Source: Armatimonas rosea (lineage in GTDB: Bacteria; Armatimonadota; Armatimonadia; Armatimonadales; Armatimonadaceae). Taken from it: DNA of 48,324 nt. Of this stretch, positions 2,455 to 43,801 are shown in pieces. How positions within the stretch are numbered: the stretch's first letter is position 1; every line of letters begins with the position of its first letter. Below the pieces are notes generated by a model. That model did no database searches and was not told where the DNA came from. It worked only from the letters and a program-made list of their open reading frames with translations. Made by a program: the position numbers and the translations under genes. The stretch covers positions 1-48,324 of the forward strand of contig NZ_JACHGW010000012.1 of NCBI RefSeq assembly GCF_014202505.1. The letters are read 5' to 3'.

Positions 2455-3525
2455 CTACACTCCCAGGTACCTAGAACTGGAATCGCTCGGACGGGCGTGC
2501 AGGTATCGTCCCGTCGTGGCAACGCTCGCATGCCCGAGCGTCTGCTGCACCAGGTGGATCGGCGCTCCCCGGTCCAGTGCATGGCTGGCATGAGCATGGC
2601 GCATCCAGTGAGGTGAGACGTTCAGCTCAATGCCTGCCCGCCGTGCCGCCTTCCGGACAACTCGCAGCACCATCGAGGGATCGAGCTTGTAGCCCCCATC
2701 CTTATCCTTTTTCCGACTCCGAAAGAGGGGAGCGCCCCCCTGCACCACTTCAGGTCGCTTCTTTTCAAGAGTCGCCTTCCAGCCCATCAGCTCGCGCCAG
2801 GTCGGAGCGGAGAGTAGAACCATACGTGTTTTCCCACCCTTACCCAAGACCGTCACCTGGCCAGCATCGCCACGAGGAGCCAGATCACCCCAGGTTAGAC
2901 CGCAGAGTTCGCTGACTCGGAGCCCACCCGCGTAGAGCAATCGTAATAGCACCCGATTACGTGGATCGGTCTCTAGGGCGAGGATCTTCTGCAGGTCCGG
3001 CTCCTCCAGAATTCGCTGGGCGAGCTGGTTCTTGACTGTAGGGAGCCGAAGAGGTGCACCGACGTTGGCAGGCAACACGCCGATGCGGTGCCCAAAGGAA
3101 AGTAGCGACTTAACCGAGGACAGCAAACGAGCCCTAGACGCTGCGGAGCGCTCTCGTTCGATCTCCACGTTGCCACCCTCGTATACCTTATATATATAGG
3201 CGCTCGCGTCGGCGAACGCCTGGACATCGCCAAGGGTGACCAGGCTGAGTGGCTTGTCCTCAGTGAACTCTATGAAGCGCTCGGCGTCGGATCGGTACGC
3301 CCGCTGGGTGTGGGAGCTTCGTCCGTGCAGCCAGAGTGCCAGGAGTCTATCGTTCAGTGACTCGGCGGGAATCTCCTGGCCGACTTGGAGCTCGGCAACG
3401 GCGCGGCGCGGGATCAGGGCCGTTCGCTCGCCCAAGTCGGCTGGAGCCGCGACCACAACGAGTTCGCCGCCCACATCCAAGATTTCCACAACATCTTCCA
3501 ACGTCTCTACCGCCTCGCTATCCAT
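2455..3525 (-). CDS. Tyrosine recombinase / phage-type integrase (XerC/D-like)
   Basis: A site-specific recombinase of 356 residues. The catalytic set is complete: Arg203 in AGGLRVSEL, a beta-hairpin Lys in VLGKGGKTR (~232), His306-x-x-Arg309 in HWMRHAHASHALDRG, His332 in LGHASVATT and nucleophile Tyr341 in GRYLHARP. A SAM-like core-binding domain spans ~55-155 (SSHTQRAYRSDAERF). About 50 extra residues precede it, rich in Glu and Val. I start at ATG 3525 because GGAGG lies 5 bases before it; an in-frame GTG at 3537 would put that sequence inside the gene. It is more like a chromosomal or integron/plasmid-type recombinase than a large phage integrase. No att site or tRNA is visible beside it. 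Confidence 0.9.
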   Translation of the reverse strand: MDSEAVETLEDVVEILDVGGELVVVAAPADLGERTALIPRRAVAELQVGQEIPAESLNDRLLALWLHGRSSHTQRAYRSDAERFIEFTEDKPLSLVTLGDVQAFADASAYIYKVYEGGNVEIERERSAASRARLLSSVKSLLSFGHRIGVLPANVGAPLRLPTVKNQLAQRILEEPDLQKILALETDPRNRVLLRLLYAGGLRVSELCGLTWGDLAPRGDAGQVTVLGKGGKTRMVLLSAPTWRELMGWKATLEKKRPEVVQGGAPLFRSRKKDKDGGYKLDPSMVLRVVRKAARRAGIELNVSPHWMRHAHASHALDRGAPIHLVQQTLGHASVATTGRYLHARPSDSSSRYLGV

Positions 3526-3858
3526 CACTACCTCCACGACTTTCCCAGACTCTAGGCACTCGCGCCAGATTCGAGACGGGACCCGCCAGAGTCGCCGAAA
3601 ATCGCCTCGCCGGGCTAATTTCGGCAGGCTTCCCTACCTTTCCTTCAATGCACGAGAAGTGCAGTTATCGGGCATTCGTCTTCTGTTTGTGTGTTGGCAG
3701 GTTTCCCGTGACTTTTGCCGAAACTCGCCAGACCAGCATGTGGAACCAAAACGCACCTGTCGGCCGACATGAAGACCCGGGCTGCGCTCCCGGATCGTAC
3801 GGCGTGAGTCTCTCGCTTGAGCGCGATCTAGGGAAGAGAGTAGTGCCCAGCAGCAGCG
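3526..3858. other. Intergenic region, nothing recognised
   Basis: About 330 bases between the divergently placed recombinase start and the end of the beta-helix gene. Overlapping frames on the plus strand (3236-3772, 3336-3887) run through the recombinase antisense and have no domain; I reject them. I looked for a tRNA or an att-like repeat beside the recombinase and found none. Confidence 0.4.
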
Positions 3859-32225: not shown

Positions 32226-33254
32226 TTAGGCTCCCCCACTGTCGAGGCCCGGAAGGCGGCCCACCTGCCAGCCCGCATTGTTGAGAAAGTCGGCTACCGC
32301 GGTTCCGGGCGGCACCAGCGTGTCGACGCCAGCGAGAAACGCTTTCGGCAGCGAAAGGTAGGCTGCGGGAAGTAGGCTAGTGAATTGCTCCAGAGTTCGC
32401 GGCCCGATCAGCGGTGCGGTGACGAGCGGGTTTGCAAGCGTCCACGCGACGGCGGCCAGTGCCGGATCGAAGCCGTGCTCGCGCGCCAATTCAACATACG
32501 CCGCCGAGACCTCGGCGGCGCTGGAGTTAGAACGCTCGCGCCACATCAAGTTTCTCGCAATTCGAGACCCTTCAGGAAGTTTTTCGGGCGAGATCGTGCC
32601 GTACTTGCCCGTGAGCTGCCCGCCCGCTAGCGGCGACCAGACGATCAGCCCCCAGCCAGCGTACTTTAGAAACCCCGCGCGGTCGTTCTCAATCCGGCGA
32701 TCCAGGATGTTGTAGGGAGCCTGCTCGCAGACCGGCCCGACCCGGTGCGCCACCTTCGCCGTCCAGTGCGCCTCCGACATCTGCCAACTCGCGAAAGTGC
32801 TCGTCCCCCAATAGCGAATCTTGCCCTCTTTCACCAGCGTGTCGAGGGTCTCGACGGTTTCTTCTAGCGGGACGCTGGGATCGTATCGGTGGAGCTGATA
32901 GAGGTCGATCCAGTCGGTGCGAAGCCGACACAGGCTCGCCTCAACGCCAGCTTTAAGGTGCCGTCGCGAAAGTCCACGATCGTTCGGCCCCGGCCCCATA
33001 GCGCCATTGACCTTCGTCGCCAACACGATCTGGGAGCGGAGGTTCGACTCTACGAAGAACTTCCCGAGAATTTCCTCGCTGCGCCCCGCGGCGTAGACAT
33101 CAGCGGTGTCCCAGAACGTCACCCCGGCGTCGCAGGCGGCATTCAGAATCGCCAGTGAGTCTTCCTCCGTGGTCGATTCACCGAAGTTCATGCAACCCAG
33201 GCAGAGGTTGCTCACCTTCAGCCCGGAGCTTCCCAGAGAAACCGTCTTCGCCAT
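32226..33254 (-). CDS. Aldo/keto reductase
   Basis: About 342 residues from ATG 33254, which has AAGAGG at fitting distance; an in-frame GTG at 33287 is less likely. It is an AKR with the tetrad Asp/Tyr in FWDTADVYAAGRSEE, Lys in VLATKVNGAMG and His in DLYQLHRYD. C-terminal VTAPLIGPRTLEQF is the NADPH-binding end. It is clearly related to the AKR at 5515-6510 (same GLKVS-LC-G-MNFG opening and same GPRTL end) but encoded alone. It converges with the TSUP gene (77 bp apart). The substrate is unknown. Confidence 0.92.
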   Translation of the reverse strand: MAKTVSLGSSGLKVSNLCLGCMNFGESTTEEDSLAILNAACDAGVTFWDTADVYAAGRSEEILGKFFVESNLRSQIVLATKVNGAMGPGPNDRGLSRRHLKAGVEASLCRLRTDWIDLYQLHRYDPSVPLEETVETLDTLVKEGKIRYWGTSTFASWQMSEAHWTAKVAHRVGPVCEQAPYNILDRRIENDRAGFLKYAGWGLIVWSPLAGGQLTGKYGTISPEKLPEGSRIARNLMWRERSNSSAAEVSAAYVELAREHGFDPALAAVAWTLANPLVTAPLIGPRTLEQFTSLLPAAYLSLPKAFLAGVDTLVPPGTAVADFLNNAGWQVGRLPGLDSGGA

Positions 33255-33485
33255 TGCCCACACCCTCTTTCCCGCCGTCCGCTCCACGCAGGTTGGCTTT
33301 GGATCATTCTACGTCAGGCGGAGGAAGGGCGCACAGACGCCCCTTCACCTGTTACTGCTCTAAGCAAACGCAGGAGCATCTCCTACGATCCGGGCGTCAC
33401 CCCCTCGCTAAGTGGACTGCGCTCAGAAAAGTGAGCAATGGGTTAAGCAACAAACCCCTAATCGCGGGTACAAGAAGCCGTTCAT

Positions 33486-33501
33486 TTTTGTACGTACAAA
33501 A
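33486..33501. promoter_or_regulatory. Palindromic operator before the RHH gene
   Basis: TTTTGTACGTACAAAA is a perfect 16-bp palindrome ending 17 bp before the start of the ribbon-helix-helix gene. RHH antitoxins typically bind such short palindromes to repress their own promoter. Confidence 0.65.
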
Positions 33502-33518
33502 TGTGATAGAGTTGAGGC

Positions 33519-33719
33519 ATGGCTACCCTCACAAAACCCGCCAATAAGGCCAAGGCTAAAGAACCCAGGACGGGGCGCATGAACCTACGCCTGTCCACCT
33601 CCGCCAAGACGCTAGTCACCGAGGTAGCACAGCTCTGTGGGCTCAGCCTCAGTGAGTATGTCCTGAGGCACGCCCTGGAAGCTGCGCACCAGCAATATGT
33701 GGCTGGCGTGCGCGAGTAG
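33519..33719 (+). CDS. Ribbon-helix-helix / DUF1778-like antitoxin, orphan
   Basis: A 66-residue protein. The basic N-terminus (KPANKAKAKEPRTGR) is followed by MNLRLSTSAKTLVTEVAQLCGLSLSEYVLRHALEAA, an RHH fold as in DUF1778/TacA-type antitoxins: strand MNLRLS, helix 1, turn GLSLSEY, helix 2. In those systems the gene is followed by a GNAT acetyltransferase toxin that blocks aminoacyl-tRNA. Here the next gene starts 131 bp away and is a regulator, so no toxin is present. The antitoxin may be an orphan, a remnant, or a stand-alone regulator. The perfect palindrome upstream suggests autoregulation. Confidence 0.75.
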   Translation: MATLTKPANKAKAKEPRTGRMNLRLSTSAKTLVTEVAQLCGLSLSEYVLRHALEAAHQQYVAGVRE

Positions 33720-33785
33720 TCTGTGATTGACACTCTCTTGATTGATTACCTGTCTACCTAAAAACACGGAGACACGAGGCGAGGA

Positions 33786-33807
33786 GCCCTACGCTGCGGC
33801 GTAGGGC
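33786..33807 (+). terminator. GC-rich hairpin after the RHH gene
   Basis: GCCCTACGC-TGCG-GCGTAGGGC is a perfect 9-bp stem with a 4-nt loop, 66 bp after the RHH stop. It is followed by GTTTGAAAA, only a weak T-tract. It would separate the RHH transcript from the regulator promoter that begins about 30 bp later. Confidence 0.5.
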
Positions 33808-33837
33808 GTTTGAAAAACGGCGGAGCCCGAGGCAGGG

Positions 33838-33843
33838 TAAAAT
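33838..33843 (+). promoter_or_regulatory. -10 element for a leaderless transcript (first regulator)
   Basis: TAAAAT lies 7 bases before GTG 33851 with no ribosome binding site between them. Transcription would start at or next to the start codon. No good -35 is seen. Confidence 0.5.
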
Positions 33844-33850
33844 CAGCGCA

Positions 33851-36484
33851 GTGGATACTTGGCACTTCGAGCTACTTGGCGGCGTTCGCGCCTCCACTGC
33901 GTCGGTTCGAGTAGATGACCAGGTGGGCAAGAAACCTGGAGCTCTACTGGCCCTGCTCGCTCTCTCACCGGGACGCACCCGGTCCCGTGAGGAAGTCATT
34001 GATATCATCTGGCCCGAGGTGGACTTTGACGAGGCGCGCAACCGCTTTCGGCAGACCCTCTTTGTGCTCCGCAAGCAGCTGGAGCCTGCCGGGGTCGCGC
34101 CGGGAAGTGTGCTCTTTACAGACCGAACCCAAGTCGGAATTGCGGCGGGGCATACGAGCGATGTTGGGTTGTTCGAGCAAGCGTTGCGCAGTGCCGCTAT
34201 GACGACCGAGCCGGTTGTTCGTGCCCAGCACTTGCGCTCTGCCTTAGCGCTTTACAAAGGCGAGTTCGCGCCGGGTTTCTACTTGGACATACTGCTCACC
34301 GAGCGGGAGAGGCTCAATGCCCTAGCGCAGAGCGCACGAGAGCGCCTCGCCGAGCTGGAGGCCACGCAGAGTACGGAAGTGACGCTGCCCGCACCCGTTC
34401 TGCCTGTGCCGGTTCGGACGGAGAACCGCTTCTTTGGCCGTCAGTCCGAGCTTGAGCACCTGCAGCTCCTGCTTGAGGACTTCCGGCTCGTGACGCTTCT
34501 AGGGCCGGGGGGTACGGGAAAGACACGTCTCGCACAGGAGCTACAAGCTACCACGCCCAGCTCTCACTTTATCAGCCTGAGCTCACTACGAAACGGGACT
34601 AGTATTCCCGATGCCATTGTCAGTACCTTAGCTTTGCCCGACTCCACGGATACAGCGCTGGTGCGCCTGCGAGCTGCTTTTGCCGAAAAGTCGGCGCTGT
34701 TGATCTTAGACAACGTTGAGCAATTAGTTACCAGCGGCGGTGCGGAGGCAATCGCAAGTGTCTTAGAAGCTGTCCCCACGCTACGTCTGCTCGCGACATC
34801 ACGCATTCGCTTGGACTTGCCACAGGAGTCGGCTTGCCAGCTTTCACCGCTTCCTAAAGACGATGCTGTTGCGCTATTTGTGGACCGCGCCCGCCTGGCT
34901 AAATCTAGCTTTGTGCTGACCGATGAAAATGAAGAAGCTATTGCCGAACTGTGCAGGCGTCTTGATGGGCTGCCACTCGCCATCGAGCTTGCCGCCGCCC
35001 GCGCTGCGATCCTGACACCACAACAGATACTGGAGCGCCTTGCTCGCCGCTTCGATCTGCTATCAGACAAGCGCCGTGACCGAGAAGAGCGGCACACGAG
35101 CTTGCGGGCCGCGCTCGACTGGGGCTGGAGCCTGCTTGCCCCCGATGTCCAGCGCTTCTTCACCCAGCTCTGCATCTTTCGAGGGAGCTTCTCGCTCGAA
35201 GCCGCCGAAGCCATAACGGGAGAGTTTCTCGCCATTGACTACCTCCAGAGCCTCGCCGATGGCTCGTTTCTTGTGGCGGAGGGAGAGCGCTTTCGCCTGC
35301 TAGAAACCCTCAGAGAATATGGCCTGGAAAAACTCAGCAAAGACGATAGCGACACGCTCACCCAAAAACACGCCGATTACTTTATAGACTGGACGGCAGA
35401 AAGGAAGCTCCTGCTCAATGGGGCGCAGTTTGCCGAGATACTAGCGCTCTTTAAGCAGGAGCAAGATAACTTTATCGCGGCACTAGACCGAACCCTGATC
35501 TCTGATGCCAAGCGGGCGGTGGTTCTGTGCCTGAACGTGGCGCGTTTCTGGAACTTCTCCTACTGGCTTCACCCGGCCCTGAGCTACCTGCAGCAAGCAC
35601 TCGCCGCGACGGAGCGTGCGGAAATTCCAGCGGAGCAAGTGGCTCTGCTCCACTCTAACTTGGGGCTGGCCTATGAGTCACTTCAAATGGACTATCTTAG
35701 CGCACGAACCCATTACCAGAAGTACTACGACTTTAAACAAGGGCAGCTTAAAGAGCGGGAGGCCGCAGGCGACGATGACGCGACACTCTTCCCGATTCGG
35801 CGTGCCCTTGCGGGAACGGTACATAATCTGGGAACGAGCTACTGGTTTGCCAAAGACCTGGACGCCGCTCAGCGCCACTACAACGAGGCCCGTATTCTCA
35901 ATACGGCTATCGGCAACGATGCCTGGCGTGCATTCAATCTCTGTGGATTGTACCTGGTCGCTTGGACACGTGGCTACTCCGCAGAAGACCCGGAGGAGCA
36001 GGCGATCTACTTTGAGCAGGCACTGAGGTATGTTCAGGAGGGGGAGGCGATCTGCCGCGAGGTTCAGCAGGATTTCTATCTGTGTTACATGCTCTGTGGG
36101 CTTGCCCGTCTCTATCCGCTCTTGAATCAGCAGGAGCGTGGCCTGCCTGCTTTAAAAGAGGGCTTTGAGATCGCCTGCGCTCTGGAGCACCGGGTTTATG
36201 TTGTGGATTTTCTCTACTTCTACTACTGTCAGGCACTCCACGACAAGCGCTTCGAGGAAGCCACGCAGTTCTGGGGAGCTGCGGCAGGCTATGCAAAACA
36301 GTGGGATATTGTGGTTCCCCATGAAGATCGTCACCTGCGTCCCCAAGTCAATCTAACAGAGCTTCTGGGGCAGGAGCGCTACGACCTGCTCTATGAGGCG
36401 GGCTTCCACGCCTCTCTCGAATCCCTCCAGACCCTCGCCGCTCGGATTCACACGTCTCACGAGACGCAACGACTAGCCTACTGA
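33851..36484 (+). CDS. AfsR-like regulator: BTAD + NB-ARC ATPase + TPR (first)
   Basis: An 877-residue STAND-type regulator. The N-terminus (1-~165) has a winged-helix/OmpR-like part (FELLGGVRASTASVRVDD, SREEVIDIIWPEVDFDEARNRFRQTLFVLRKQL) and a BTAD bundle (LRSALALYKGEFAPGFYLD). The NB-ARC domain holds Walker A GPGGTGKT (218-225), Walker B LLILDNVEQLV, LLATSRIRL and GLPLAIELAAARA. The C-terminal ~400 residues are TPR-like helices (LHSNLGLAYESLQMDY, HNLGTSYWFAKDLDAAQRHYNEARIL). Such proteins activate specific promoters upon ATP and effector/phosphorylation input. GTG 33851 follows TAAAAT at leaderless distance. The next gene is a second member of the family, 23 bp downstream but with its own TATAAT. 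Confidence 0.9.
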   Translation: MDTWHFELLGGVRASTASVRVDDQVGKKPGALLALLALSPGRTRSREEVIDIIWPEVDFDEARNRFRQTLFVLRKQLEPAGVAPGSVLFTDRTQVGIAAGHTSDVGLFEQALRSAAMTTEPVVRAQHLRSALALYKGEFAPGFYLDILLTERERLNALAQSARERLAELEATQSTEVTLPAPVLPVPVRTENRFFGRQSELEHLQLLLEDFRLVTLLGPGGTGKTRLAQELQATTPSSHFISLSSLRNGTSIPDAIVSTLALPDSTDTALVRLRAAFAEKSALLILDNVEQLVTSGGAEAIASVLEAVPTLRLLATSRIRLDLPQESACQLSPLPKDDAVALFVDRARLAKSSFVLTDENEEAIAELCRRLDGLPLAIELAAARAAILTPQQILERLARRFDLLSDKRRDREERHTSLRAALDWGWSLLAPDVQRFFTQLCIFRGSFSLEAAEAITGEFLAIDYLQSLADGSFLVAEGERFRLLETLREYGLEKLSKDDSDTLTQKHADYFIDWTAERKLLLNGAQFAEILALFKQEQDNFIAALDRTLISDAKRAVVLCLNVARFWNFSYWLHPALSYLQQALAATERAEIPAEQVALLHSNLGLAYESLQMDYLSARTHYQKYYDFKQGQLKEREAAGDDDATLFPIRRALAGTVHNLGTSYWFAKDLDAAQRHYNEARILNTAIGNDAWRAFNLCGLYLVAWTRGYSAEDPEEQAIYFEQALRYVQEGEAICREVQQDFYLCYMLCGLARLYPLLNQQERGLPALKEGFEIACALEHRVYVVDFLYFYYCQALHDKRFEEATQFWGAAAGYAKQWDIVVPHEDRHLRPQVNLTELLGQERYDLLYEAGFHASLESLQTLAARIHTSHETQRLAY

Positions 36485-36492
36485 AGAATCGG

Positions 36493-36498
36493 TATAAT
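36493..36498 (+). promoter_or_regulatory. -10 element for a leaderless transcript (second regulator)
   Basis: A consensus TATAAT 9 bases before ATG 36508, no ribosome binding site between. It lies in the 23-bp gap after the first regulator gene, so the second regulator can be transcribed on its own. Confidence 0.6.
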
Positions 36499-36507
36499 CG
36501 AGCCTGT

Positions 36508-39342
36508 ATGGTACACCTGAGGCTCCTAGGGACCTTCCGTGCTCAGACCCAGGAGGGGCTCCCACTACGCTTCAGCCGCCGGAAATCAGAGGCACTCGTG
36601 GCCTTCCTCGCGCTCCATCCTGGCCCGCACTCCCGGGAGAAACTCGCCGGGCTCTTTGGGGGTGAAGGCACCGACGACGACACACGAAGGGCATTGCGTG
36701 TCGTTCTCACCGATGTGCGCAAAGCGCTGGGCGAGACGAGTCTCCAGGGCGACCGGGATACGCTGGAGCTATCCCCCGAGCTACGGGTACAGCTCGATAC
36801 GACGGCACTGGAGCGGCATCTGCGCCTAGGGGAGCTAGAGGCGGCGCTGGCCCTCTGCCAAGGCGAGCTTTTGGAGGGGATCTACGACGACTGGGTGCTG
36901 CCACTGCGCGAGCACTACCGGCGGCAGGTATGTGAGGCTCTAGAGAGCCATGTCGGGCGGCGACGAAGCGCGGGGGACTATGCCGGTGCGATTACCTCGG
37001 CCCAGCGGCTTCTCGCTCTGGACCCCGCCCATGAGCCTGCCCACCAGCATCTGATGGTTTGCTACGCCGCCTCGGGGGATCGACAGAGCGCTCTCGCCCA
37101 GTACGAGGCCTGCCGTGCGGCTCTGGAAAAGCGGCTCGGGACAGCTCCCTCGAAGGAGACTCAGGCACTCTGGCAGGAAGTTCAGAGACACGCTGAGGGC
37201 ACCACGGCGGCGGCACTGACCAACCTGCCCCGCCCCCTGACCAGCTTTATAGGGCGCGAAGAGGCCCTAGAGGAGATCGAGACCCTTCTCACTCAGGCGC
37301 GGCTCGTGACCCTCACGGGAATGGGGGGGCATGGGAAAACACGCCTCGCGATCCAGGCGGCTGAGGAGGGTAGCCACGCCTTCCCCGATGGCGTCTGGTG
37401 GGTGGAGCTCGCTTCGTTAACCGAGGAAGGACAGCTAGAGCAGGCAATTGCTCATGTCCTAGGGGTGAAGGAGCGGGGTGGGAAGCCGCTGCGGCTGCAG
37501 GTGGCACAGGCACTTAGCGAGAAGCGGCTCTTGCTGTTGCTGGACAACGCGGAGCATCTGCTTGCCGCCTGCGCCGACACGGTCGAGTACTTGCTGGCGC
37601 ACTGCCAAGGACTCACCGTTCTTACTACCAGCCGTGTCCGCCTCGGGGTGCCCGGTGAGACTGCCTGGGCGGTCCCCCCCCTCACCGTGCCGATACGCAC
37701 TGAGCTCAAGTATCTCAAGAAGAACGAATCTGTTCAGTTTTTTATCGAGCGAGGGCGCATAGGGGGGCTACAGCTGAGCGACGAGAACGCGGCGACCATC
37801 GCCACGCTCTGCCAGCGACTGGAGGGAATCCCTCTGGCATTGGAGCTAGCGGCGGCGCAACTACGTACCCAGAGCCTAGAGCAGCTCGCGAGCCGTATCC
37901 AGACCACCTTAGAGGCGCTGGTCTCCGACGATCCCACCCAAACGCCACGTCAGCGAACCCTCCATGCTCTGGTCGCGTGGAGCTATGCGCTCCTGAACCC
38001 GGTAGAGCAGGCGCTCTTCCGACGGCTTGCGGTCTTTGCGGGAAGTGGAGGGTTGGAGGCGGTGGCAGTGATCGCAAGCGGCTACGATACGCCTCACGAG
38101 ACACTCCTTCCCCAAACGACGGCCTCGGTGTGGGCGCTTCCCGTCACGGGTCTCCTCGTGACCCAACAGCTACTGGAGAGCCTCTCGGAGAAATCTCTCC
38201 TGCGACGTTTTCGGAGCGAGCAGGGAGTGCGCTATGGCATGCTGGAGACCCTGCGTGAGTTCGCCTTGGGAGTGCTACAAGACGAAAACGAGTGCGTGCC
38301 TCTACGAAAGCGCCATGCACAGTATTTCTCCGAGCAGCTTGCCCACGCGAGTGTGGATCTCTACACCGCACAAGAATCTGGGCTCTTTGCCCTGCTGGAG
38401 CAGGAGCTTCCCAATGTGCGCGAAGCACTGGCACACCAGCTGGAGACACCAGACTGGCTTTGCTCTGCCCCAATGCTCTCCACCCTACGGCGCTTCTGGC
38501 AGGTGCGAGGGTACTTCACCGAGGCGCGTTCGTGGCTAACCCGGCTCCTTGAGCACCCTGCTGCCCTGTCTCTCTCCGAGGAGCGGGGGGAGCTCTTACA
38601 CGGGCTGGGTGTACTACTGGCCCTGAGCGGTGAGCTCGAAACGGCACGGGAGTGGCTTGAGCAAGCCCAAGCGGTCTATGAGGCCTGCTCCGTTCCAGAG
38701 AAGCGGGCCATTGTCCTCAATAACCTTGGCAATATCGCCATGGACCAGCACGACCTAGCGACCGCACGTCCCCTCTTCGAGCAGGCACGGCTCTTGGCGG
38801 AGGAATCAGGGAGTGTGCGTGTCCAGAGCATGACCCTCAACAACCTCGGCACCTTCTTGAAGAGCTCTGGGAACTGGGCAGAGGCGCGGGTGGTTCTGGG
38901 CGAGAGCCTTCGGTTGTACGAGAGCCAGGGGAACCGACGCGGGATGGGAATCGTGCTCAGTAACCTGGGAGCAATCGCCCTCGATTTGCAGGACAACGTC
39001 GAGGCGCAGCAAAACTTCACCAGCGCTTTATTGATTCACTGTGAGGTGCAGGACCGCCGGGGGGCAATGATCTCCGTCATCAATTTAGCGACCTTAACCC
39101 GCCGTCAGCAGGACTGGGAAGTCACCGCGCTCCTACTGGGAACCATACAAACCACACTAGAGCAGCTTGCCATTCAGCTTGGCCCAGAGGCGCAAGCCGC
39201 CTACCAAGGGCTCCTCAATGACACCCGTCAGGCCTTGGGCGAGTCGCGCCTTGATGTTATCCTGGCTCAGGGCAGAGCGCTCTCAATGGAAGCGGCCATG
39301 GAGCAGATTCCATCCGCGCTACAGAGCCAAACGGCTTTGTAG
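36508..39342 (+). CDS. AfsR-like regulator: BTAD + NB-ARC ATPase + TPR (second)
   Basis: A 944-residue protein of the same architecture as its neighbour. The winged-helix part is VHLRLLGTFRAQTQEGLPLRFSRRKSEALVAFLAL, with TRRALRVVLTDVRKALG. The BTAD bundle (~90-240) contains YAGAITSAQRLLALDPAHEPAHQHLMVCYAASGDRQSAL. The NB-ARC domain has Walker A GMGGHGKT (271-278), RLLLLLDNAEHLL, LTTSRVRLGVP and IPLALELAAAQ. C-terminal TPRs are clear (IVLNNLGNIAMDQHDLATARPLFEQARLL, LNNLGTFLKSSGNWAEARVVLGESLRL). The two regulators are paralogous but clearly diverged. Its 3' end forms a terminator hairpin and overlaps the first SARP-type box for the repeat-protein gene. It is a prime candidate activator of the following genes. 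Confidence 0.92.
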   Translation: MVHLRLLGTFRAQTQEGLPLRFSRRKSEALVAFLALHPGPHSREKLAGLFGGEGTDDDTRRALRVVLTDVRKALGETSLQGDRDTLELSPELRVQLDTTALERHLRLGELEAALALCQGELLEGIYDDWVLPLREHYRRQVCEALESHVGRRRSAGDYAGAITSAQRLLALDPAHEPAHQHLMVCYAASGDRQSALAQYEACRAALEKRLGTAPSKETQALWQEVQRHAEGTTAAALTNLPRPLTSFIGREEALEEIETLLTQARLVTLTGMGGHGKTRLAIQAAEEGSHAFPDGVWWVELASLTEEGQLEQAIAHVLGVKERGGKPLRLQVAQALSEKRLLLLLDNAEHLLAACADTVEYLLAHCQGLTVLTTSRVRLGVPGETAWAVPPLTVPIRTELKYLKKNESVQFFIERGRIGGLQLSDENAATIATLCQRLEGIPLALELAAAQLRTQSLEQLASRIQTTLEALVSDDPTQTPRQRTLHALVAWSYALLNPVEQALFRRLAVFAGSGGLEAVAVIASGYDTPHETLLPQTTASVWALPVTGLLVTQQLLESLSEKSLLRRFRSEQGVRYGMLETLREFALGVLQDENECVPLRKRHAQYFSEQLAHASVDLYTAQESGLFALLEQELPNVREALAHQLETPDWLCSAPMLSTLRRFWQVRGYFTEARSWLTRLLEHPAALSLSEERGELLHGLGVLLALSGELETAREWLEQAQAVYEACSVPEKRAIVLNNLGNIAMDQHDLATARPLFEQARLLAEESGSVRVQSMTLNNLGTFLKSSGNWAEARVVLGESLRLYESQGNRRGMGIVLSNLGAIALDLQDNVEAQQNFTSALLIHCEVQDRRGAMISVINLATLTRRQQDWEVTALLLGTIQTTLEQLAIQLGPEAQAAYQGLLNDTRQALGESRLDVILAQGRALSMEAAMEQIPSALQSQTAL

Positions 39343-39349
39343 CGCTTTT
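39316..39349 (+). terminator. Terminator overlapping the end of the second regulator gene
   Basis: GCGCTACAGAGCC-AAAC-GGCTTTGTAGCGC forms a 13-bp stem (one G-U pair) with a 4-nt loop, followed by TTTT. It spans the stop codon at 39340-39342. The right arm is also the first half of the 11-bp direct repeat described next. Confidence 0.7.
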
Positions 39350-39370
39350 GTAGCGCTTGCTCCTTAGAAT
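39337..39370 (+). promoter_or_regulatory. SARP-type promoter box for repeat protein 1
   Basis: TTGTAGCGCTT occurs twice in direct succession (39338-39348 region and 39349-39358 region, period exactly 11 bp). The second TGTAGCGC ends 8 bp before TAGAAT (39365-39370). SARP activators bind direct repeats with an 11-bp period, the promoter-proximal one 8 bp from the -10. The regulator genes immediately upstream carry the matching DNA-binding domain. The overlap with the terminator is a caution. Confidence 0.6.
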
Positions 39371-39420
39371 GGTTTTCGTAAGCTAAATCAACTCCCTTAT
39401 CGGAAAGGAAAACGAAAACC

Positions 39421-39603
39421 ATGAACACCAACATCATCAAGACCAACGCAACCAAGGGCGCTGGCATCAACCACAACGAGTCCACGCTTCGCACTTCTGC
39501 TGGCAAGGGATCTGGCACGAATCATAACGAGAGTGGGCTCCGCACTTCTGCAACGAAGGGAACGGGCGGCAATCACAACGAGAGCGTGCTCAAGGTGAAG
39601 TAG
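39421..39603 (+). CDS. Small tandem-repeat protein 1 (3-4 NHNES repeats)
   Basis: A 60-residue protein of unknown family made almost wholly of a 17-residue repeat. The layout is MNTNIIKTNATKGAGI, then NHNESTLRTSAGKGSGT, NHNESGLRTSATKGTGG and NHNESVLKVK. The N-terminus is itself a degenerate unit (NTNIIKT aligns with HNESTLRT), so there is no separate leader or signal peptide. It is basic, hydrophilic, lacks Cys, Trp and Tyr, and is likely cytoplasmic or exported without a standard signal. GGAAAGGA precedes ATG by about 11 bases. Position and style recall AfsS of Streptomyces, a ~63-residue repeat protein made under AfsR control, but the repeat sequence is different. Confidence 0.8.
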   Translation: MNTNIIKTNATKGAGINHNESTLRTSAGKGSGTNHNESGLRTSATKGTGGNHNESVLKVK

Positions 39604-39623
39604 CCCCCATCGCCGAGACGGTG

Positions 39624-39667
39624 CCCCCCCAATCATAGGACTGAACTGCCCCCATGATTGAGGGGGG
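39624..39667 (+). terminator. Hairpin after repeat protein 1 gene
   Basis: CCCCCCAATCAT (from 39625) pairs with ATGATTGAGGGGGG (39654-39667) apart from one bulged A, around a 17-nt loop. It begins about 20 bp after the stop. No T-run follows, so it is a probable but non-canonical terminator that would separate the two repeat-protein genes. Confidence 0.55.
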
Positions 39668-39728
39668 TGAGGAACGAGGCAGGGGCGTGGGGCAAATATA
39701 ACACAACATTTTCCCGCGCCTCGCCAAA

Positions 39729-39761
39729 ACTAACGGTGGACTAACGGAGGCTTCGTAAGAT
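39729..39761 (+). promoter_or_regulatory. SARP-type promoter box for repeat protein 2
   Basis: ACTAACGGTGG (39729-39739) and ACTAACGGAGG (39740-39750) are direct repeats with an 11-bp period, differing at one base. ACTAACGG of the second copy ends 8 bp before TAAGAT (39756-39761). Geometry is the same as in the box for repeat protein 1, but the sequence differs, which suggests a different activator or different affinity. The start codon is 100 bp downstream. Confidence 0.65.
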
Positions 39762-39860
39762 GGTGTCATAGCAAGCAGCCAAGCACAAAACAAAAATAAT
39801 AAAGCAAGGCGCTTGAAAAAAGACCAGGCGGAGACGCCCGGAAACAAGGAAACCAAAACT

Positions 39861-40247
39861 ATGAACACCAACACCATCAAGACCAGTGCAACCAAGGCCT
39901 TCGCACGGAACCACAACGAGTCCACGCTACGCACCGCTGCTGCAAAAGCCTATGTTCGGAACCACAACGAGAGCGCACTCCGCACCGTTGCTGCAAAGGG
40001 CATCAGCATCAACCACAACGAGTCCACGCTACGCACCGCTGCTGGCAAGGGGCTAAGCCTCAATCATAACGAGAGCGCGATTAAGACCACGGCTGCCAAG
40101 GGTATCAGCCTCAATCACAACGAGTCTACGCTACGCACCGCTGCTGCAAAAGCCTATAATCGGAACCACAACGAGTCCACGCTACGCACCGTAGCTGCAA
40201 AGGGCGTGAGTCTCAACCACAACGAGAGCGCGATCAAGGCGAAGTAG
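39861..40247 (+). CDS. Small tandem-repeat protein 2 (8 NHNES-type repeats)
   Basis: A 128-residue paralogue of the 60-residue protein. After a degenerate first unit (MNTNTIKTSATKAFAR) come six full units and a final half, all beginning NHNES with an exact 17-residue (51-bp) period. The consensus is NHNES-[TA]-[LI]-[RK]-T-x-[AG]-[AG]-K-[AG]-x-x-x, and the end is NHNESAIKAK. Two unit types (with KAYxR and with KGxSL) partly alternate. I use ATG 39861, because MNTNTIKT matches the paralogue and AAGGAAA precedes it; an ATG at 39813 is less likely. There is no signal peptide and no Cys. Possible roles: AfsS-like regulator, repeat precursor peptide, or metal/nucleic acid binding. None is proven. 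Confidence 0.8.
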   Translation: MNTNTIKTSATKAFARNHNESTLRTAAAKAYVRNHNESALRTVAAKGISINHNESTLRTAAGKGLSLNHNESAIKTTAAKGISLNHNESTLRTAAAKAYNRNHNESTLRTVAAKGVSLNHNESAIKAK

Positions 40248-40267
40248 CCTCCCCTGCTCGTACCCTT

Positions 40268-40299
40268 GCCACTCCCTTCCCGGAGCCGGAAGGAGTGGC
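40268..40299 (+). terminator. Hairpin after repeat protein 2 gene
   Basis: GCCACTCCCTTCC (40268-40280) pairs with GGAAGGAGTGGC (40288-40299), allowing one bulged C, around a 7-nt loop. No T-run follows. It may protect the 3' end or attenuate transcription into the small secreted-protein gene 33 bp later. Confidence 0.5.
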
Positions 40300-40332
40300 G
40301 GGTCGAGGTGAAAACGGAAACGGACGAAACGG

Positions 40333-40530
40333 ATGAAAACTCTCTTACTGATTGCCCTACTTTTGATGACGACGACACCTAGCTTTGCCGACGACTCCAA
40401 CTCCGAGCGTCCCGGCTGGATGCGCGAGGGCAAGGTCGTTCAGGCCCGCGAGCTCTCTGTTGCCTTCCAGGGCTTTGTCTATCTCACCTGCTACGCCACC
40501 TCCCAGAGCGCCGTAAAGAAAAACGCATGA
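40333..40530 (+). CDS. Small secreted protein
   Basis: A 65-residue protein with a good signal peptide (MKTLLLIALLLMTTTPSFA, cleavage before DDSNSER). The mature ~46 residues read ERPGWMREGKVVQARELS and then GFVYLTCYATSQ, with a single Cys. I recognise no family. GGAAACGGA-type purine-rich sequence precedes the ATG. Its stop overlaps the TPR gene start (ATGA at 40527), so it belongs to the TPR-MFS operon. It could be an exported peptide, a partner of the exporter, or a small periplasmic factor. Confidence 0.65.
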   Translation: MKTLLLIALLLMTTTPSFADDSNSERPGWMREGKVVQARELSVAFQGFVYLTCYATSQSAVKKNA

Positions 40531-41606
40531 GCACAATAGAGAGCGCCATCGCACTTTTTGAAGATGCCAGTGCCGCCCGTGAGCAGGGCAGCATTGCCCA
40601 AGCCACGACACTCTGTGCGCAGAGCTTGGCGCTCTTTGAACAGCTTGAGGGCGACTCTCCCGACACCGCCAACGTTCTCCTCACCCTCGGCGAGCTTCAG
40701 CAGGCGCTTGGCGACTACGAAGAAGCAAAAGAGTCGGCGACACGGGCGGAGACGATTTTAGACACCCTGAAAGAGAGCTTTACAGGGCCTGTTGCCGTAG
40801 GGCTGCGCGTACAGGCACTGGGGCAAATCGGCAATGTGCTTCGCCACCAGGGGAGGTACAGCGAGGCCAAGTGCTTTCTCGGTAAGGCCCTTGAGCTGGC
40901 CCGCGATGGCTTGGGTGAGAGCGACGAGAACACGGCCTTTGCCCGCAACAATGTCGGGATGCTCTACAAGTACACTGCCCAGTTCGACGAGGCCGAGGAA
41001 CTCTACGGCACCGCACTCACCGCACTTGAGAAAGAGCTCGGGGAAGGGCACCCCAACACCGCCACGCTCTACCATAACCTTGGGGGACTAGAGCACGCCC
41101 GCGGAAATTACGAAAAAGGCGAGCCACTGGCAAGACGAGCCTGGGAGATTAACCGAGAGCACCTCGGCGAGAGCCATCCCACCACCCTCGCCGATGCCGC
41201 CGCTTGGGCAGGGCTCCTCGATGGATTGGAGCGCTACAACGAATCCGAGCCAATCTACCGGCGAGTCCTAGAGACCTTCGAAGCCCTCTACGGCCCCGAG
41301 CACTACGAGGTAGTCGTTGCACTCAACAACCTCGCCAATGTGCGTTATGCGTTGGGGGATGTGGCAGAAGCCGAGTCTCTCATGCGCCGTGCTCTGACCG
41401 CCAAGGAAAGCTCCCTCGGCCCCGAGCACCCCGACACGGCACTCACGGCAAGCAACCTGGGCGTCATCCTCCAGAGCAGGGGCCAGACCGACGAGGCACG
41501 CACCCTCTTTACCCGCGCCCTCAACACGTTCCAGAATACCGTCGGCAAAGACCACCCTAAGACTCAGATGGCACGCGAAAACCTTGCAAGTGTAGGACTT
41601 TCGTGA
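40527..41606 (+). CDS. Tetratricopeptide-repeat protein (kinesin-light-chain type)
   Basis: A 359-residue protein made of about eight 42-residue TPRs, with the kinesin-light-chain-like pattern: LGQIGNVLRHQGRYSEAKCFLGKALEL, ARNNVGMLYKYTAQFDEAEELYGTALTALEKELGEGHPNTATLYHNLGGLEHARGNYEKGEPLARRAWEI. No catalytic domain, signal peptide or membrane segment is visible. This repeat type often accompanies STAND regulators and may bind peptides or proteins. It overlaps the small secreted-protein gene by 4 bp and the MFS gene by 4 bp (GTGA), so the three are translated together. Confidence 0.9.
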   Translation: MSTIESAIALFEDASAAREQGSIAQATTLCAQSLALFEQLEGDSPDTANVLLTLGELQQALGDYEEAKESATRAETILDTLKESFTGPVAVGLRVQALGQIGNVLRHQGRYSEAKCFLGKALELARDGLGESDENTAFARNNVGMLYKYTAQFDEAEELYGTALTALEKELGEGHPNTATLYHNLGGLEHARGNYEKGEPLARRAWEINREHLGESHPTTLADAAAWAGLLDGLERYNESEPIYRRVLETFEALYGPEHYEVVVALNNLANVRYALGDVAEAESLMRRALTAKESSLGPEHPDTALTASNLGVILQSRGQTDEARTLFTRALNTFQNTVGKDHPKTQMARENLASVGLS

Positions 41607-42817
41607 CCGTCTTTCGAGCCCTGCGAAACCGAACCTTCGCCGCACTCTGGCTAGGGCAGACCCTCTCCCGTATCGGGGACTTCACCTATGAGCTCGCACT
41701 GGCATGGTGGGTCCTCAAGAAAACCGGCTCACCACAGGCAACCAGCCTCGTGCTGATCTTTGCCCTCACCCCCTCAGTTCTCTTTTCACTTCTCGGAGGA
41801 GTCGCCGCGGATAAGTTCGCGCGTGCCTGGCTGATGCTCGGTTCAGATATAGCCCGTGGAGTCGTCGCGCTGGCCGTGGCCCTGCTGAGCGCCTCGGGAA
41901 GGCTAGAGGTGTCGCATCTCTACGTGGCGAGCCTGCTCTTTGGGTTTCTGGATGCCTTCTTTCAGCCCGCCTACGCCGCCCTCGTTCCCCAGCTCATCTC
42001 CGAGGACGAGCGCCCTTCCGCCACAGCACTTACGGGCATCAGTATGAGCCTCGGACGAATCGCCGGGCCTGCTATCGGTGCTGGGCTGGTGGCAGCCCTA
42101 GGTCCAACGTTAGCATTCAGTATAAACGCCGTGACGTTCTTCGTCTCCAGTCTTCTCCTGCTTCCTGCCCTGGGAGTTCGCCTTCCCAAAGCCGCGATTC
42201 CCCATGAGGCTCCCCTCTGGCAGTCACTCGGAGAAGGCTTTCGCACGGTTCGTCGCCAGCGCTGGCTGTGGGTAAGCATCGTGCTCTTTGCCTTGACCAA
42301 TATCACCCTGGTCGCACCGTATTGTGTCTGTATGCCCTATCTGGTGACGCAAGTGCGCCACGCGGGAGTGGGCACTCTGGGAATACTCTACGCCGCATTT
42401 CCACTGGGTTACCTGCTCGGGGGTCTCTGGCTTGGGCGACTGCCGCGGCTACGGCGACGTGGTCTGGTGATGCATGGAGCGATGGCTCTAGCAGCGACCA
42501 TGCTTGCGCTCCTGGGAACACGTCTGCCACTCCCCGTTCTCCTCGTGGCAGCTCTGATAAACGGGGTGGCGCTGGAGGCCAATAACCTGGCCTGGATGGG
42601 ACTCCTCCAAGAGAAGATCCCTCCCGAGCAACAGGGGCGTGTCTTTAGTATCGATGCGATGGGGTCGCTCGCACTCCTGCCTCTTGGGCTCGCGCTGGTA
42701 GGCTGGGGGGCAGTGGTGCTTGGGCCAGATAAGATCTTTCTCCTTGGTGGCAGCGTGACCACCCTGCTCTCTCTGTTCGTACTAGTAAGCGTGCCCTCCC
42801 TACGTCAACTGGATTGA
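41603..42817 (+). CDS. MFS transporter (probable exporter)
   Basis: A 404-residue permease with 12 predicted TM helices. The N-terminal RNRTFAALWLGQTLSRIGDFTYELALAWWV is typical of the MFS_3/enterobactin-exporter-like and macrolide-exporter groups. GGVAADKFARAWLMLGSDIARG contains the loop 2-3 motif (G-x-x-A-D-x-x-x-R region). The second half starts about residue 215 with RQRWLWVSIVLFALTNI. GTG 41603 overlaps the TPR stop. Its partners suggest export of a small product of this locus, but no biosynthetic enzyme is present. Confidence 0.9.
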   Translation: MTVFRALRNRTFAALWLGQTLSRIGDFTYELALAWWVLKKTGSPQATSLVLIFALTPSVLFSLLGGVAADKFARAWLMLGSDIARGVVALAVALLSASGRLEVSHLYVASLLFGFLDAFFQPAYAALVPQLISEDERPSATALTGISMSLGRIAGPAIGAGLVAALGPTLAFSINAVTFFVSSLLLLPALGVRLPKAAIPHEAPLWQSLGEGFRTVRRQRWLWVSIVLFALTNITLVAPYCVCMPYLVTQVRHAGVGTLGILYAAFPLGYLLGGLWLGRLPRLRRRGLVMHGAMALAATMLALLGTRLPLPVLLVAALINGVALEANNLAWMGLLQEKIPPEQQGRVFSIDAMGSLALLPLGLALVGWGAVVLGPDKIFLLGGSVTTLLSLFVLVSVPSLRQLD

Positions 42818-42937
42818 GCCACCAGGAAATGGCTGTGAGCTAAGATACCAAAATATGGTTCCTTTAGGGAGACACTTAGGGCATGGAGCGACTGCTGACG
42901 CCCCTCGGGGTGAGAACTCCCCGGAGTGCTCTGGCGG

Positions 42938-42943
42938 GTACAA
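42938..42943 (+). promoter_or_regulatory. -10 element for a leaderless transcript (Rpn-like gene)
   Basis: TACAAT ends 6 bases before ATG 42950 and there is no ribosome binding site. Same arrangement as before 33851 and 36508. Confidence 0.55.
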
Positions 42944-42949
42944 TCAGAC

Positions 42950-43801
42950 ATGCCCACTCCCTTCGACGCGACCACCAAAGAGCTGGTACGATTCCAGCCC
43001 GAGGACTGGCTCGCGCTCCTCGGACTGCCACCTGAGCCCTGTGAGCTGGTGGATGCGGATCTGGCAACCGTCTCCACAGAAGCTGACCGACTCATTCGTG
43101 TCAACTCCGCCAAGCCCTACCTCGTCCACATAGAGTTTCAGGCAGGGCACGATGGGCATGCCGTTCCGGGCCGAATGTTGCGCTACAACGTCCTGGCGGG
43201 TGAGCAGACTGGCCTCGTCGTCCTGAGCTATGTGATCTTGCTCCGACCCGAGGCCGACAGCCCCGCGCTCACGGGCAACGTCGAGCGCCTCCGTCCCAAC
43301 GGAACCCGCTACCTCGCCTTCGAGTTTGGCGTGATACGGCTCTGGAAGCTACCAGTTGCTCAGGTACTCCGCGGCGGACTAGCGACACTTCCTTTGGCTC
43401 TACTCTGTGACCTTTCCGCCACAACACCCGAGAATGTAGTCACGAATCTAGAGACCAGGATCGAGGCGGAAGCAGAGCAGGAAGAGCGGCGCAAACTCTG
43501 GACTTCGACCTACTTGCTGGCTGGGGTGCGGTACGCACCGGAAATTGCCGGTAAACTATTGGAGAAAGCGGTGGCACAGATGAAAGAATCCATGACATAT
43601 CAGAAGATCCTCGCAGACGGACGCGAGGAAGGCAAGGTTGACGGGGAGCGCTTACTCTTCTTAAAAGTGTCTCGACCTCGTTTAGGCGAGCCCGACGCAA
43701 AGACGCTCGCTGTCATCAATGCTGCATCCTCGGAGACTATCGAGCTTTGGGCAGATAATTTGAACCGCGTCGAGAGCTGGAGCGAACTCGTCAAAGCCTG
43801 A
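42950..43801 (+). CDS. Rpn-like / DUF4351 PD-(D/E)XK nuclease family protein
   Basis: About 283 residues from ATG 42950; this start fits the leaderless -10, and an in-frame TTG at 42926 would not. The core has ADRLIRVNSAKPYLVHIEFQAGHDGHAVPGRMLRYN, where the Asp and the E-x-Q (HIEFQ) are the usual Rpn-type PD-(D/E)XK residues. The C-terminus (SRPRLGEPDAKTLAVINAASSETIELWADNLNRVESWSELV) is a DUF4351-type helical tail. Such proteins are common, multi-copy accessory nucleases in cyanobacteria and related genomes. Activity is not certain. A hairpin with a T-run follows ~90 bp later. Confidence 0.75.
   Translation: MPTPFDATTKELVRFQPEDWLALLGLPPEPCELVDADLATVSTEADRLIRVNSAKPYLVHIEFQAGHDGHAVPGRMLRYNVLAGEQTGLVVLSYVILLRPEADSPALTGNVERLRPNGTRYLAFEFGVIRLWKLPVAQVLRGGLATLPLALLCDLSATTPENVVTNLETRIEAEAEQEERRKLWTSTYLLAGVRYAPEIAGKLLEKAVAQMKESMTYQKILADGREEGKVDGERLLFLKVSRPRLGEPDAKTLAVINAASSETIELWADNLNRVESWSELVKA

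What the first reader, a model, noticed from the sequence alone, without database searches (positions are those of the whole stretch)
33838..42817. AfsR/AfsS-like module outside Actinobacteria: twin BTAD-STAND regulators, two NHNES-repeat proteins, small secreted protein, TPR, MFS
Seen: two BTAD-NB-ARC-TPR regulators followed on the same strand by two small, wholly repetitive proteins, then a translationally coupled small secreted protein, TPR protein and MFS transporter. Known: in Streptomyces, AfsR (same architecture) directly activates afsS, which encodes a ~63-residue protein of short repeats that stimulates secondary metabolism. Inference: this is an independent or distant version in a diderm, non-actinobacterial genome, duplicated in both regulator and repeat protein. 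I know of no description of this repeat family.
Basis: partly seen in the sequence, partly recalled or inferred. Interest (0 to 1): 0.9.

Follow-up and report, generated by a model that had tools for sequence, protein, structure and literature searches.

The report
Tandem-repeat peptides with a TPR partner
Two small repeat proteins in this bacterium belong to an apparently undescribed family of tandem-repeat peptides that is found in distant bacteria beside a dedicated partner protein and often an exporter, and here sits behind two antibiotic-regulator-like genes.

Summary
In detail: two AfsR-architecture regulators, two NHNES-repeat proteins, then an overlapping small secreted-looking protein, TPR protein and MFS transporter. 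The AfsS reading does not: three AfsS proteins lack the motif and align with the NHNES proteins no better than their own shuffles.

What recurs elsewhere is the repeat peptide plus a TPR partner: in two Kutzneria-type genomes, four genomes of another genus of that family (one keeps only a short form) and a Streptomyces plasmid, where the peptide is unannotated. These TPR proteins form one clade with the window's (100/99), apart from all 29 TPR matches fetched from its own phylum. A C39-peptidase ABC exporter adjoins the TPR gene in three of the genomes, an MFS transporter in the plasmid and the window. No BTAD-STAND gene was found beside the peptides in these seven actinobacterial loci.

Best reading: exported multi-copy peptide precursors with a dedicated TPR protein, here under AfsR-type control. 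The cassette is shown; the function is inferred.

The parts
33851..36484 (+). regulator 1: weak winged helix / marginal BTAD, NB-ARC (STAND), weak TPR; 877 aa
36508..39342 (+). regulator 2: BTAD (77 bits), NB-ARC, TPR; 944 aa
   Evidence: 65 bits to AfsR model NF053617, cut-off 1430
39316..39345 (+). 13-pair terminator-like hairpin at the end of regulator 2; overlaps the first copy of the direct repeat below
   Evidence: 10 such sites in 33500-43000, 8.4 expected; this one has the most pairs
39337..39358 (+). perfect 11-bp tandem direct repeat TTGTAGCGCTT x2, afs-box-like; TAGAAT (possible -10) at 39365-39370
39421..39603 (+). repeat protein 1: degenerate first unit + 3 NHNES units, 17-aa period
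39624..39666 (+). hairpin between repeat genes 1 and 2 (16-nt arms, 88% complementary)
   Evidence: fold of 39600-39690 z-score -1.95, 7 of 200 shuffles as good
39729..39750 (+). 11-bp tandem direct repeat ACTAACGGTGG/ACTAACGGAGG (10/11), afs-box-like; TAAGAT (possible -10) at 39756-39761
39861..40247 (+). repeat protein 2: degenerate first unit + 7 NHNES units, 17-aa period
   Evidence: AlphaFold mean pLDDT 47, single sequence
40333..40530 (+). 65-aa protein with signal-peptide-like N-terminus (by eye); stop overlaps the TPR start (ATGA)
   Evidence: no Pfam or NCBIfam match
40527..41606 (+). standalone TPR protein, in one clade with actinobacterial TPR proteins encoded beside NHN peptides
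41603..42817 (+). MFS transporter (MFS_3/MFS_1), start overlaps the TPR stop (GTGA)

Best explanation
An NHN-peptide cassette. Shown: tandem-repeat peptides with the motif NH[NS][EQ]xx[LIV](x)[RK] (Kutzneria keeps only the NH[NS][EQ] part) are encoded next to a standalone TPR protein of one clade in the window and in several Actinobacteria, and an exporter gene adjoins or overlaps the TPR gene in four of seven actinobacterial loci (C39-ABC in three genomes, MFS in the Streptomyces plasmid) and in the window (MFS). Inferred: the repeat proteins are multi-copy precursors or carriers of a short peptide; the TPR protein binds the NH core, as carrier or receptor; the exporter moves the peptide out, so it acts as a secreted signal or effector. 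In this genome the cassette has been placed under AfsR-type activators that bind 11-bp direct repeats upstream of both peptide genes.
For: Pairing: Kutzneria buriramensis L019 (NHNE-N39-NHNE hits only 4 stretches in the genome collection, and one is this pair); second Kutzneria-type genome; three genomes with [repeat peptide]-[33-aa peptide]-[TPR]-[C39-ABC]-[ABC], one of them, L086, without the long repeat peptide; a fourth, L088, with an NHNQ peptide between two TPR genes; Streptomyces plasmid with an unannotated peptide, MFS and TPR. TPR tree: the window, the plasmid and all 15 standalone relatives in one clade of 17 of 66 rows, support 100/99. Peptide similarity to repeat protein 2 beyond shuffles: 0 of 1000 as high for the plasmid, L087 and Kutzneria peptides, 3 of 1000 for L085. 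C39 peptidase 66.8, 70.8 and 72.3 bits, cut-off 22, in L085, L086, L087. Purifying selection on NHNES. Boxes: the only two clusters at >=10/11 in the window against 6 clusters in 358,218 other bases of the genome, none 11/11.
Against: No signal peptide or proven cleavage site on the repeat proteins. In Kutzneria no exporter lies in the peptide-TPR operon; the convergent neighbour looks like a permease by eye but has no Pfam match. The MFS of the window and of the plasmid are not close (26.6 bits). Nine of the 15 standalone TPR relatives have no NH-motif peptide just upstream, though one of these, L063, lies in the same cluster as L080; L082 has only a 33-aa peptide with NQHSE. On the tree the peptide label needs 4 changes. 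With a shuffle that keeps the repeat period, L085 against repeat protein 2 is weaker (14 of 1000). The first box shares sequence with a terminator-like hairpin. The six actinobacterial upstream regions scanned have no box at >=9/11.
Confidence: 0.5

Rival explanations
1. The repeat proteins stay in the cell as multivalent ligands of the TPR protein: a strand of NH motifs on flexible linkers that clusters or titrates it (scaffold, antagonist or stability partner). The exporter serves another substrate.
For: Peptide and TPR are the constant pair; exporters are not orthologous or are missing. The second Kutzneria-type member has only two units. In L088 an NHNQ peptide is fused in frame to a short TPR segment.
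Against: A C39-peptidase ABC exporter adjoins the TPR gene in three genomes, overlapping it in two as called, and MFS overlaps TPR in two unrelated lineages.
Confidence: 0.25
2. A ribosomally made, modified peptide (RiPP) whose modifying enzyme is unlinked or not recognised; the TPR protein helps maturation as in FxSxx-type clusters.
For: The window TPR resembles the TPR part of FxsT (172 bits, below cut-off 300); its partners score 67-111 bits. C39-ABC and MFS are usual RiPP exporters (general knowledge).
Against: No radical SAM or other maturase among the 27 window ORFs scanned or among the genes shown around the cassette in L085-L088, L096, L098 (middle 12 kb, read by eye). No FxSxx C-terminus.
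Confidence: 0.12
3. AfsS-like: AfsR-type regulators switch on small intracellular repeat proteins that stimulate secondary metabolism.
For: Gene order regulator then repeat protein; 11-bp direct repeats upstream of both repeat genes as in the afsS promoter (passages of PMC10936776).
Against: No sequence relation to three AfsS proteins; relatives lie beside TPR and exporter genes, not regulators.
Confidence: 0.1
4. Structural, metal-binding or amyloid-like low-complexity protein with no signalling role.
For: Regular His-bearing repeats; no confident fold (single sequence).
Against: Recurring TPR partner; no secretion signal; motif number from 2 to 7 and free linkers.
Confidence: 0.03

Closest known systems
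AfsR/AfsS of Streptomyces
   Same: BTAD-STAND-TPR regulator followed by a small repeat protein; paired 11-bp direct repeats before the small gene
   Different: Repeat sequence unrelated; two regulators and two repeat genes; relatives pair with a TPR partner and exporter instead of a regulator
RRNPPA quorum sensing with tandemly duplicated propeptides (Rap3T-Phr3T; abstract and outline of PMC11343458 seen)
   Same: TPR-type protein (recalled for Rap) beside a precursor with several copies of one peptide
   Different: The repeat proteins have no signal peptide by eye, the TPR was not tested against a Rap model, an exporter gene is present, diderm and actinobacterial hosts
FxSxx-COOH peptide systems (NCBIfam FxsT; section 24 of PMC7159879 read)
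   Same: Small variable peptide beside a TPR protein; TPR region similar
   Different: No FxSxx tail, no radical SAM or metallopeptidase recognised beside the repeat genes; TPR scores below the FxsT cut-off
C39-ABC (PCAT) peptide exporters
   Same: Adjoins the cassette in three actinobacterial genomes
   Different: The window has MFS; the usual double-glycine leader is not evident by eye

Membership tests
AfsS | AfsS repeat sequence | tested here: not met
   0 NH[NS][EQ] motifs in 3 AfsS; 736 to 1000 of 1000 shuffles score as high
AfsS | lies just downstream of an AfsR-type gene | tested here: met
   78 nt after regulator 2
AfsS | paired 11-bp direct repeats next to the -10 element | tested here: inconclusive
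   present at both genes; first overlaps a hairpin; binding not testable here
AfsR (NF053617) | score over the curated cut-off 1430 | tested here: not met
   regulator 2: 65 bits; regulator 1 not listed at E<=5
SARP/BTAD-STAND regulators | winged helix + BTAD + NB-ARC + TPR | tested here: inconclusive
   regulator 2: BTAD, NB-ARC and TPR over cut-off, winged helix not listed; regulator 1: NB-ARC over cut-off, BTAD only, winged helix and TPR below cut-off
FxSxx-COOH system | FxsT over cut-off 300; FxSxx tail; radical SAM | tested here: not met
   172 bits; tails end NHNESVLKVK and NHNESAIKAK; no radical SAM in the 27 ORFs scanned
RRNPPA quorum sensing | Sec signal peptide on the propeptide | tested here: inconclusive
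   by eye none on the repeat proteins, one on the separate 65-aa protein; no predictor run
RRNPPA quorum sensing | TPR protein binds the re-imported peptide | not testable with these tools
   needs binding assay
RiPP | maturation enzyme in the cluster | tested here: not met
   none recognised in 27 ORFs
NHN-peptide/TPR cassette (defined here) | tandem NH[NS][EQ] peptide next to a standalone TPR of one clade | tested here: met

The most novel reading that the evidence does not exclude
A previously undescribed class of peptide communication or conflict systems, spread across phyla: multi-copy NHN peptides with a dedicated TPR partner and an interchangeable exporter, here wired to twin AfsR-type STAND regulators whose own TPR domains may sense the peptide.
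Probability: 0.3. Interest if true: 0.82.

Novelty: new variant of a known kind. Interest (0 to 1): 0.62.

Why it matters
Small repetitive genes are easily left out of annotation (the Streptomyces plasmid peptide has no feature). A peptide family with a recurring TPR partner across phyla would give a handle on what the TPR domains of AfsR-type regulators sense, a question I take from general knowledge to be open, and on peptide signals outside Bacillota. It can be tested with one synthetic peptide and one purified TPR protein.

Tried and rejected
AfsS homology: rejected. Relatives of repeat protein 2 by protein search: only the own genome of 41 searched; 36 candidate stretches in the genome collection, none confirmed; nothing believable in plasmids (best E 0.3, collagen-binding proteins). 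NHNE pattern with variable gap: own genome only, of 291 in the phylum; 2 of 396 in the phylum of Kutzneria, namely Kutzneria itself and G769, which looks like chance. Pattern hits set aside as unrelated: Nocardia albiluteola large N-rich protein, Clostridium mediterraneense repeat proteins (2 loci), two viral contigs. Window TPR in its phylum: 26 of 291 genomes at E<=1e-20, own genome included; only up to 7 candidates a genome were scored. In the BLASTP the four best rows after the window itself are actinobacterial (163-175 bits), the best phylum row has 141, and two peptide-associated rows (L083 133, L082 125) lie below it, L080 (117) further down. Plasmid TPR hits: 11 of 123 records opened (H1-H6, H11, H14-H16, H19); H11 has no annotation; of the other ten only H5 is a standalone TPR gene, the rest are TPR proteins of about 790-1150 aa. 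The Piscinibacter C39-ABC hit lies in another peptide cluster. Structure of repeat protein 2: no confident fold. Rfam: no match in 33000-43500. DUF5908 resembles the L085 peptide weakly (21.6 bits, cut-off 27.7): not followed. The first trees had 17 of 29 phylum loci prepared and 11 used, six lost as empty or under 150 residues, and left out L062; one search puts in all 29, L062 and the ten longer-frame matches, and the clade stands.

Full report
Observation. Regulator 2 is a BTAD-NB-ARC-TPR protein; regulator 1 looks the same with a marginal BTAD. Repeat proteins 1 and 2 have 3 and 7 NHNES units at exactly 17 residues, after a degenerate first unit and with a short last unit ending in KVK or KAK. 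N, H, N, E and S are invariant in 10 of 10 units, while the codons of the first N, the H and the S vary and serine is coded by TCC, TCT, AGC and AGT. That is selection on the protein, not recent DNA copying. The 65-aa protein, TPR and MFS genes overlap. The genome has 6.3 Mb in 19 contigs and 16 BTAD matches, so BTAD genes are common there. The contig is exactly the window and shows no end overlap.

Is it AfsS? I took AfsS from three genomes in which AfsR passes the NCBIfam cut-off, 3 of 60 searched. Their repeats are GDAHAT, TTLNNAMP and ADFHAT types. None has NH[NS][EQ]. Of their own shuffles, 736 to 1000 of 1000 score as high against the NHNES proteins, whereas for the peptides described next 0 to 3 of 1000 do. 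Membership in AfsS is therefore rejected.

Relatives. In the genome collection, two NHNE motifs at the window's spacing occur in 4 stretches; the window's own genome may be left out of that scan. Three are long N-rich proteins in Nocardia and Clostridium. The fourth is a 72-aa protein of Kutzneria buriramensis whose gene overlaps a TPR gene; that TPR is 37% identical to the window's over 297 columns. A search with that TPR in 240 genomes of the family, up to 10 candidates scored in each, gave 25 matches at E<=1e-20: 15 standalone relatives in open frames of 290-428 aa (one, L062, with an internal stop) and 10 in longer frames. Upstream of five of the 15 are small proteins with NH motifs (L060, L061, L080, L081, L083), and a sixth (L082) has only a 33-aa peptide with NQHSE. 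L083 reads ...NHNDELVVRTDIKAGYEPDNHSEELVVRTDIRVGARDEKTNHSEELVIRTDIRAG..., close to the window's NHNESTLRTAAAKG. Nine of the 15 have none just upstream; one of those (L063) is in the L080 cluster.

Exporters. In L085, L086 and L087 the order is repeat peptide (missing in L086), 33-aa peptide, TPR, an ABC protein of about 714 aa with a C39 peptidase domain (66.8, 70.8 and 72.3 bits, cut-off 22), and a second ABC protein. TPR and C39-ABC genes overlap in L086 and L087; in L085 my simple gene caller starts the ABC gene 41 nt further on. The genus has 8 held genomes and 3 of them match the long peptide or its short form; a fourth, G422 (L088), has an NHNQ peptide fused to a short TPR segment between two TPR genes. 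A plasmid TPR hit (40% identical) led to Streptomyces sp. NBC_01334. There an MFS gene comes first and overlaps the TPR gene, and an unannotated ORF upstream reads MTQNNQAVVRRAGSMNHNQAVVRRAGSMNHNQAVVAR, behind a GGAGGAAG ribosome-binding sequence. So the window's three parts, peptide, TPR and MFS, recur in another phylum. The two MFS proteins are not close, so the exporter is interchangeable. In the two Kutzneria-type loci no exporter is in the operon; the neighbour on the other strand looks like a permease by eye and has no Pfam match (L098 scanned).

Tree. I put together the window TPR, the plasmid TPR, all 25 matches, all 29 TPR loci fetched from the window's phylum and ten plasmid TPR segments: 66 rows. 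The window, the plasmid and all 15 standalone relatives form one clade of 17, support 100/99; no row from the window's own phylum is in it (the bootstrap had not fully settled, and 9 rows fill half of the columns or fewer). Smaller sets agree (100/98 for 16 of 27 rows; 100/99 for 16 of 37). Eight of the 17 are labelled as having a peptide, L082 with its short form among them; the label needs four changes (0 of 500 shuffles as low), and near-copies inflate that. The kinship fits transfer between phyla; the direction is not known.

Regulators. tblastn with both regulators found nothing in L085-L088, L090 and L095-L098; hits in L089 and L091-L094 lie about 8 kb away, beside TPR loci without an NH peptide. 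The plasmid stretch has none annotated. The regulators are thus a local addition.

Control. In AfsR promoters two 11-bp direct repeats lie just upstream of the -10 element (passages of PMC10936776). The window has only two clusters with at least 10 of 11 matches at an 11-bp step: TTGTAGCGCTT x2 at 39337 and ACTAACGGTGG/ACTAACGGAGG at 39729. They stand upstream of the two repeat genes, followed by TAGAAT and TAAGAT after 6 and 5 bp. The window has 5 such positions, 2 of them 11/11; 30 Markov shuffles gave 0.77 on average and no 11/11. In 18 other stretches (358,218 bases, 14 of them around other BTAD matches) there were 6 clusters, none 11/11; steps of 9, 10, 12, 13 and 14 gave 23, 3, 30, 0 and 8 clusters. 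Both boxes hold TARCG. Caveat: the first copy of the first box is also the 3' arm of a 13-pair terminator-like hairpin at the end of regulator 2. No such box (at least 9/11) was found in 300-350 nt before the actinobacterial peptides of L085-L087, L096, L098 and L101; L088 was not scanned. I rate direct control by BTAD regulators as likely for repeat gene 2 and possible for repeat gene 1.

Mechanism. Shown: peptide-TPR pairing across phyla, adjacency to exporters, conserved NH core, variable copy number and linkers. Inferred: export, peptide release and signalling or effector action, by analogy with tandem propeptides of Rap-Phr systems (abstract of PMC11343458) and with FxSxx peptide systems beside TPR proteins (section 24 of PMC7159879). 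Hairpins behind repeat genes 1 and 2 could let the peptide genes be expressed above the downstream genes; that is inference, and their folding is only modestly better than shuffles (7 and 24 of 200 as good).

Novelty. No Pfam or NCBIfam family above cut-off for the two window repeat proteins, four of the actinobacterial peptides or the plasmid peptide. In the held library no paper holds the six peptide strings tried or the term combination; NHNET gave 15 papers, none on such a peptide by title. The library is open-access only. I call it a new variant of a known kind, since multi-copy peptide precursors, TPR partners and SARP control are each known.

Noticed in passing
window 33519-33719 (+): 66-aa ribbon-helix-helix-like protein (Pfam TacA1 33 bits, cut-off 21; NikA-like 28.2, cut-off 27) just before regulator 1.
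   Followed up: no
window 39369-39379 / 39412-39422: Perfect 11-nt inverted repeat whose 3' arm covers the start of repeat gene 1; it could hide the start codon if transcription begins upstream of it.
   Followed up: no
L101 3251-3364 (NZ_CP130719.1 383069-383182): Unannotated 37-aa NHN tandem-repeat peptide in a Streptomyces plasmid.
   Followed up: yes
L088 9882-10151 (-): NHNQ peptide fused in frame to a short TPR segment, between two TPR genes.
   Followed up: partly
L085-L087, genus of G438: The C39-ABC/TPR/peptide cassette is in 3 of 8 held genomes by peptide match; one has no long repeat peptide. Looks accessory.
   Followed up: partly
L021, L022: Clostridium mediterraneense has long proteins with many VVNHNKENTDKHSDAKP-like repeats and an LPDTG end.
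   Followed up: no
L116: Piscinibacter gummiphilus plasmid: C39-ABC with MoeB and DUF692 genes, a probable modified-peptide cluster.
   Followed up: no
window 2455-3537 (-): Phage-type integrase near the contig start.
   Followed up: no
window 42926-43801 (+): 291-aa ORF after the MFS gene without a Pfam match at E<=0.001.
   Followed up: no
L081/L085 peptide: Weak resemblance to Pfam DUF5908 (21.6 bits, below cut-off 27.7).
   Followed up: no
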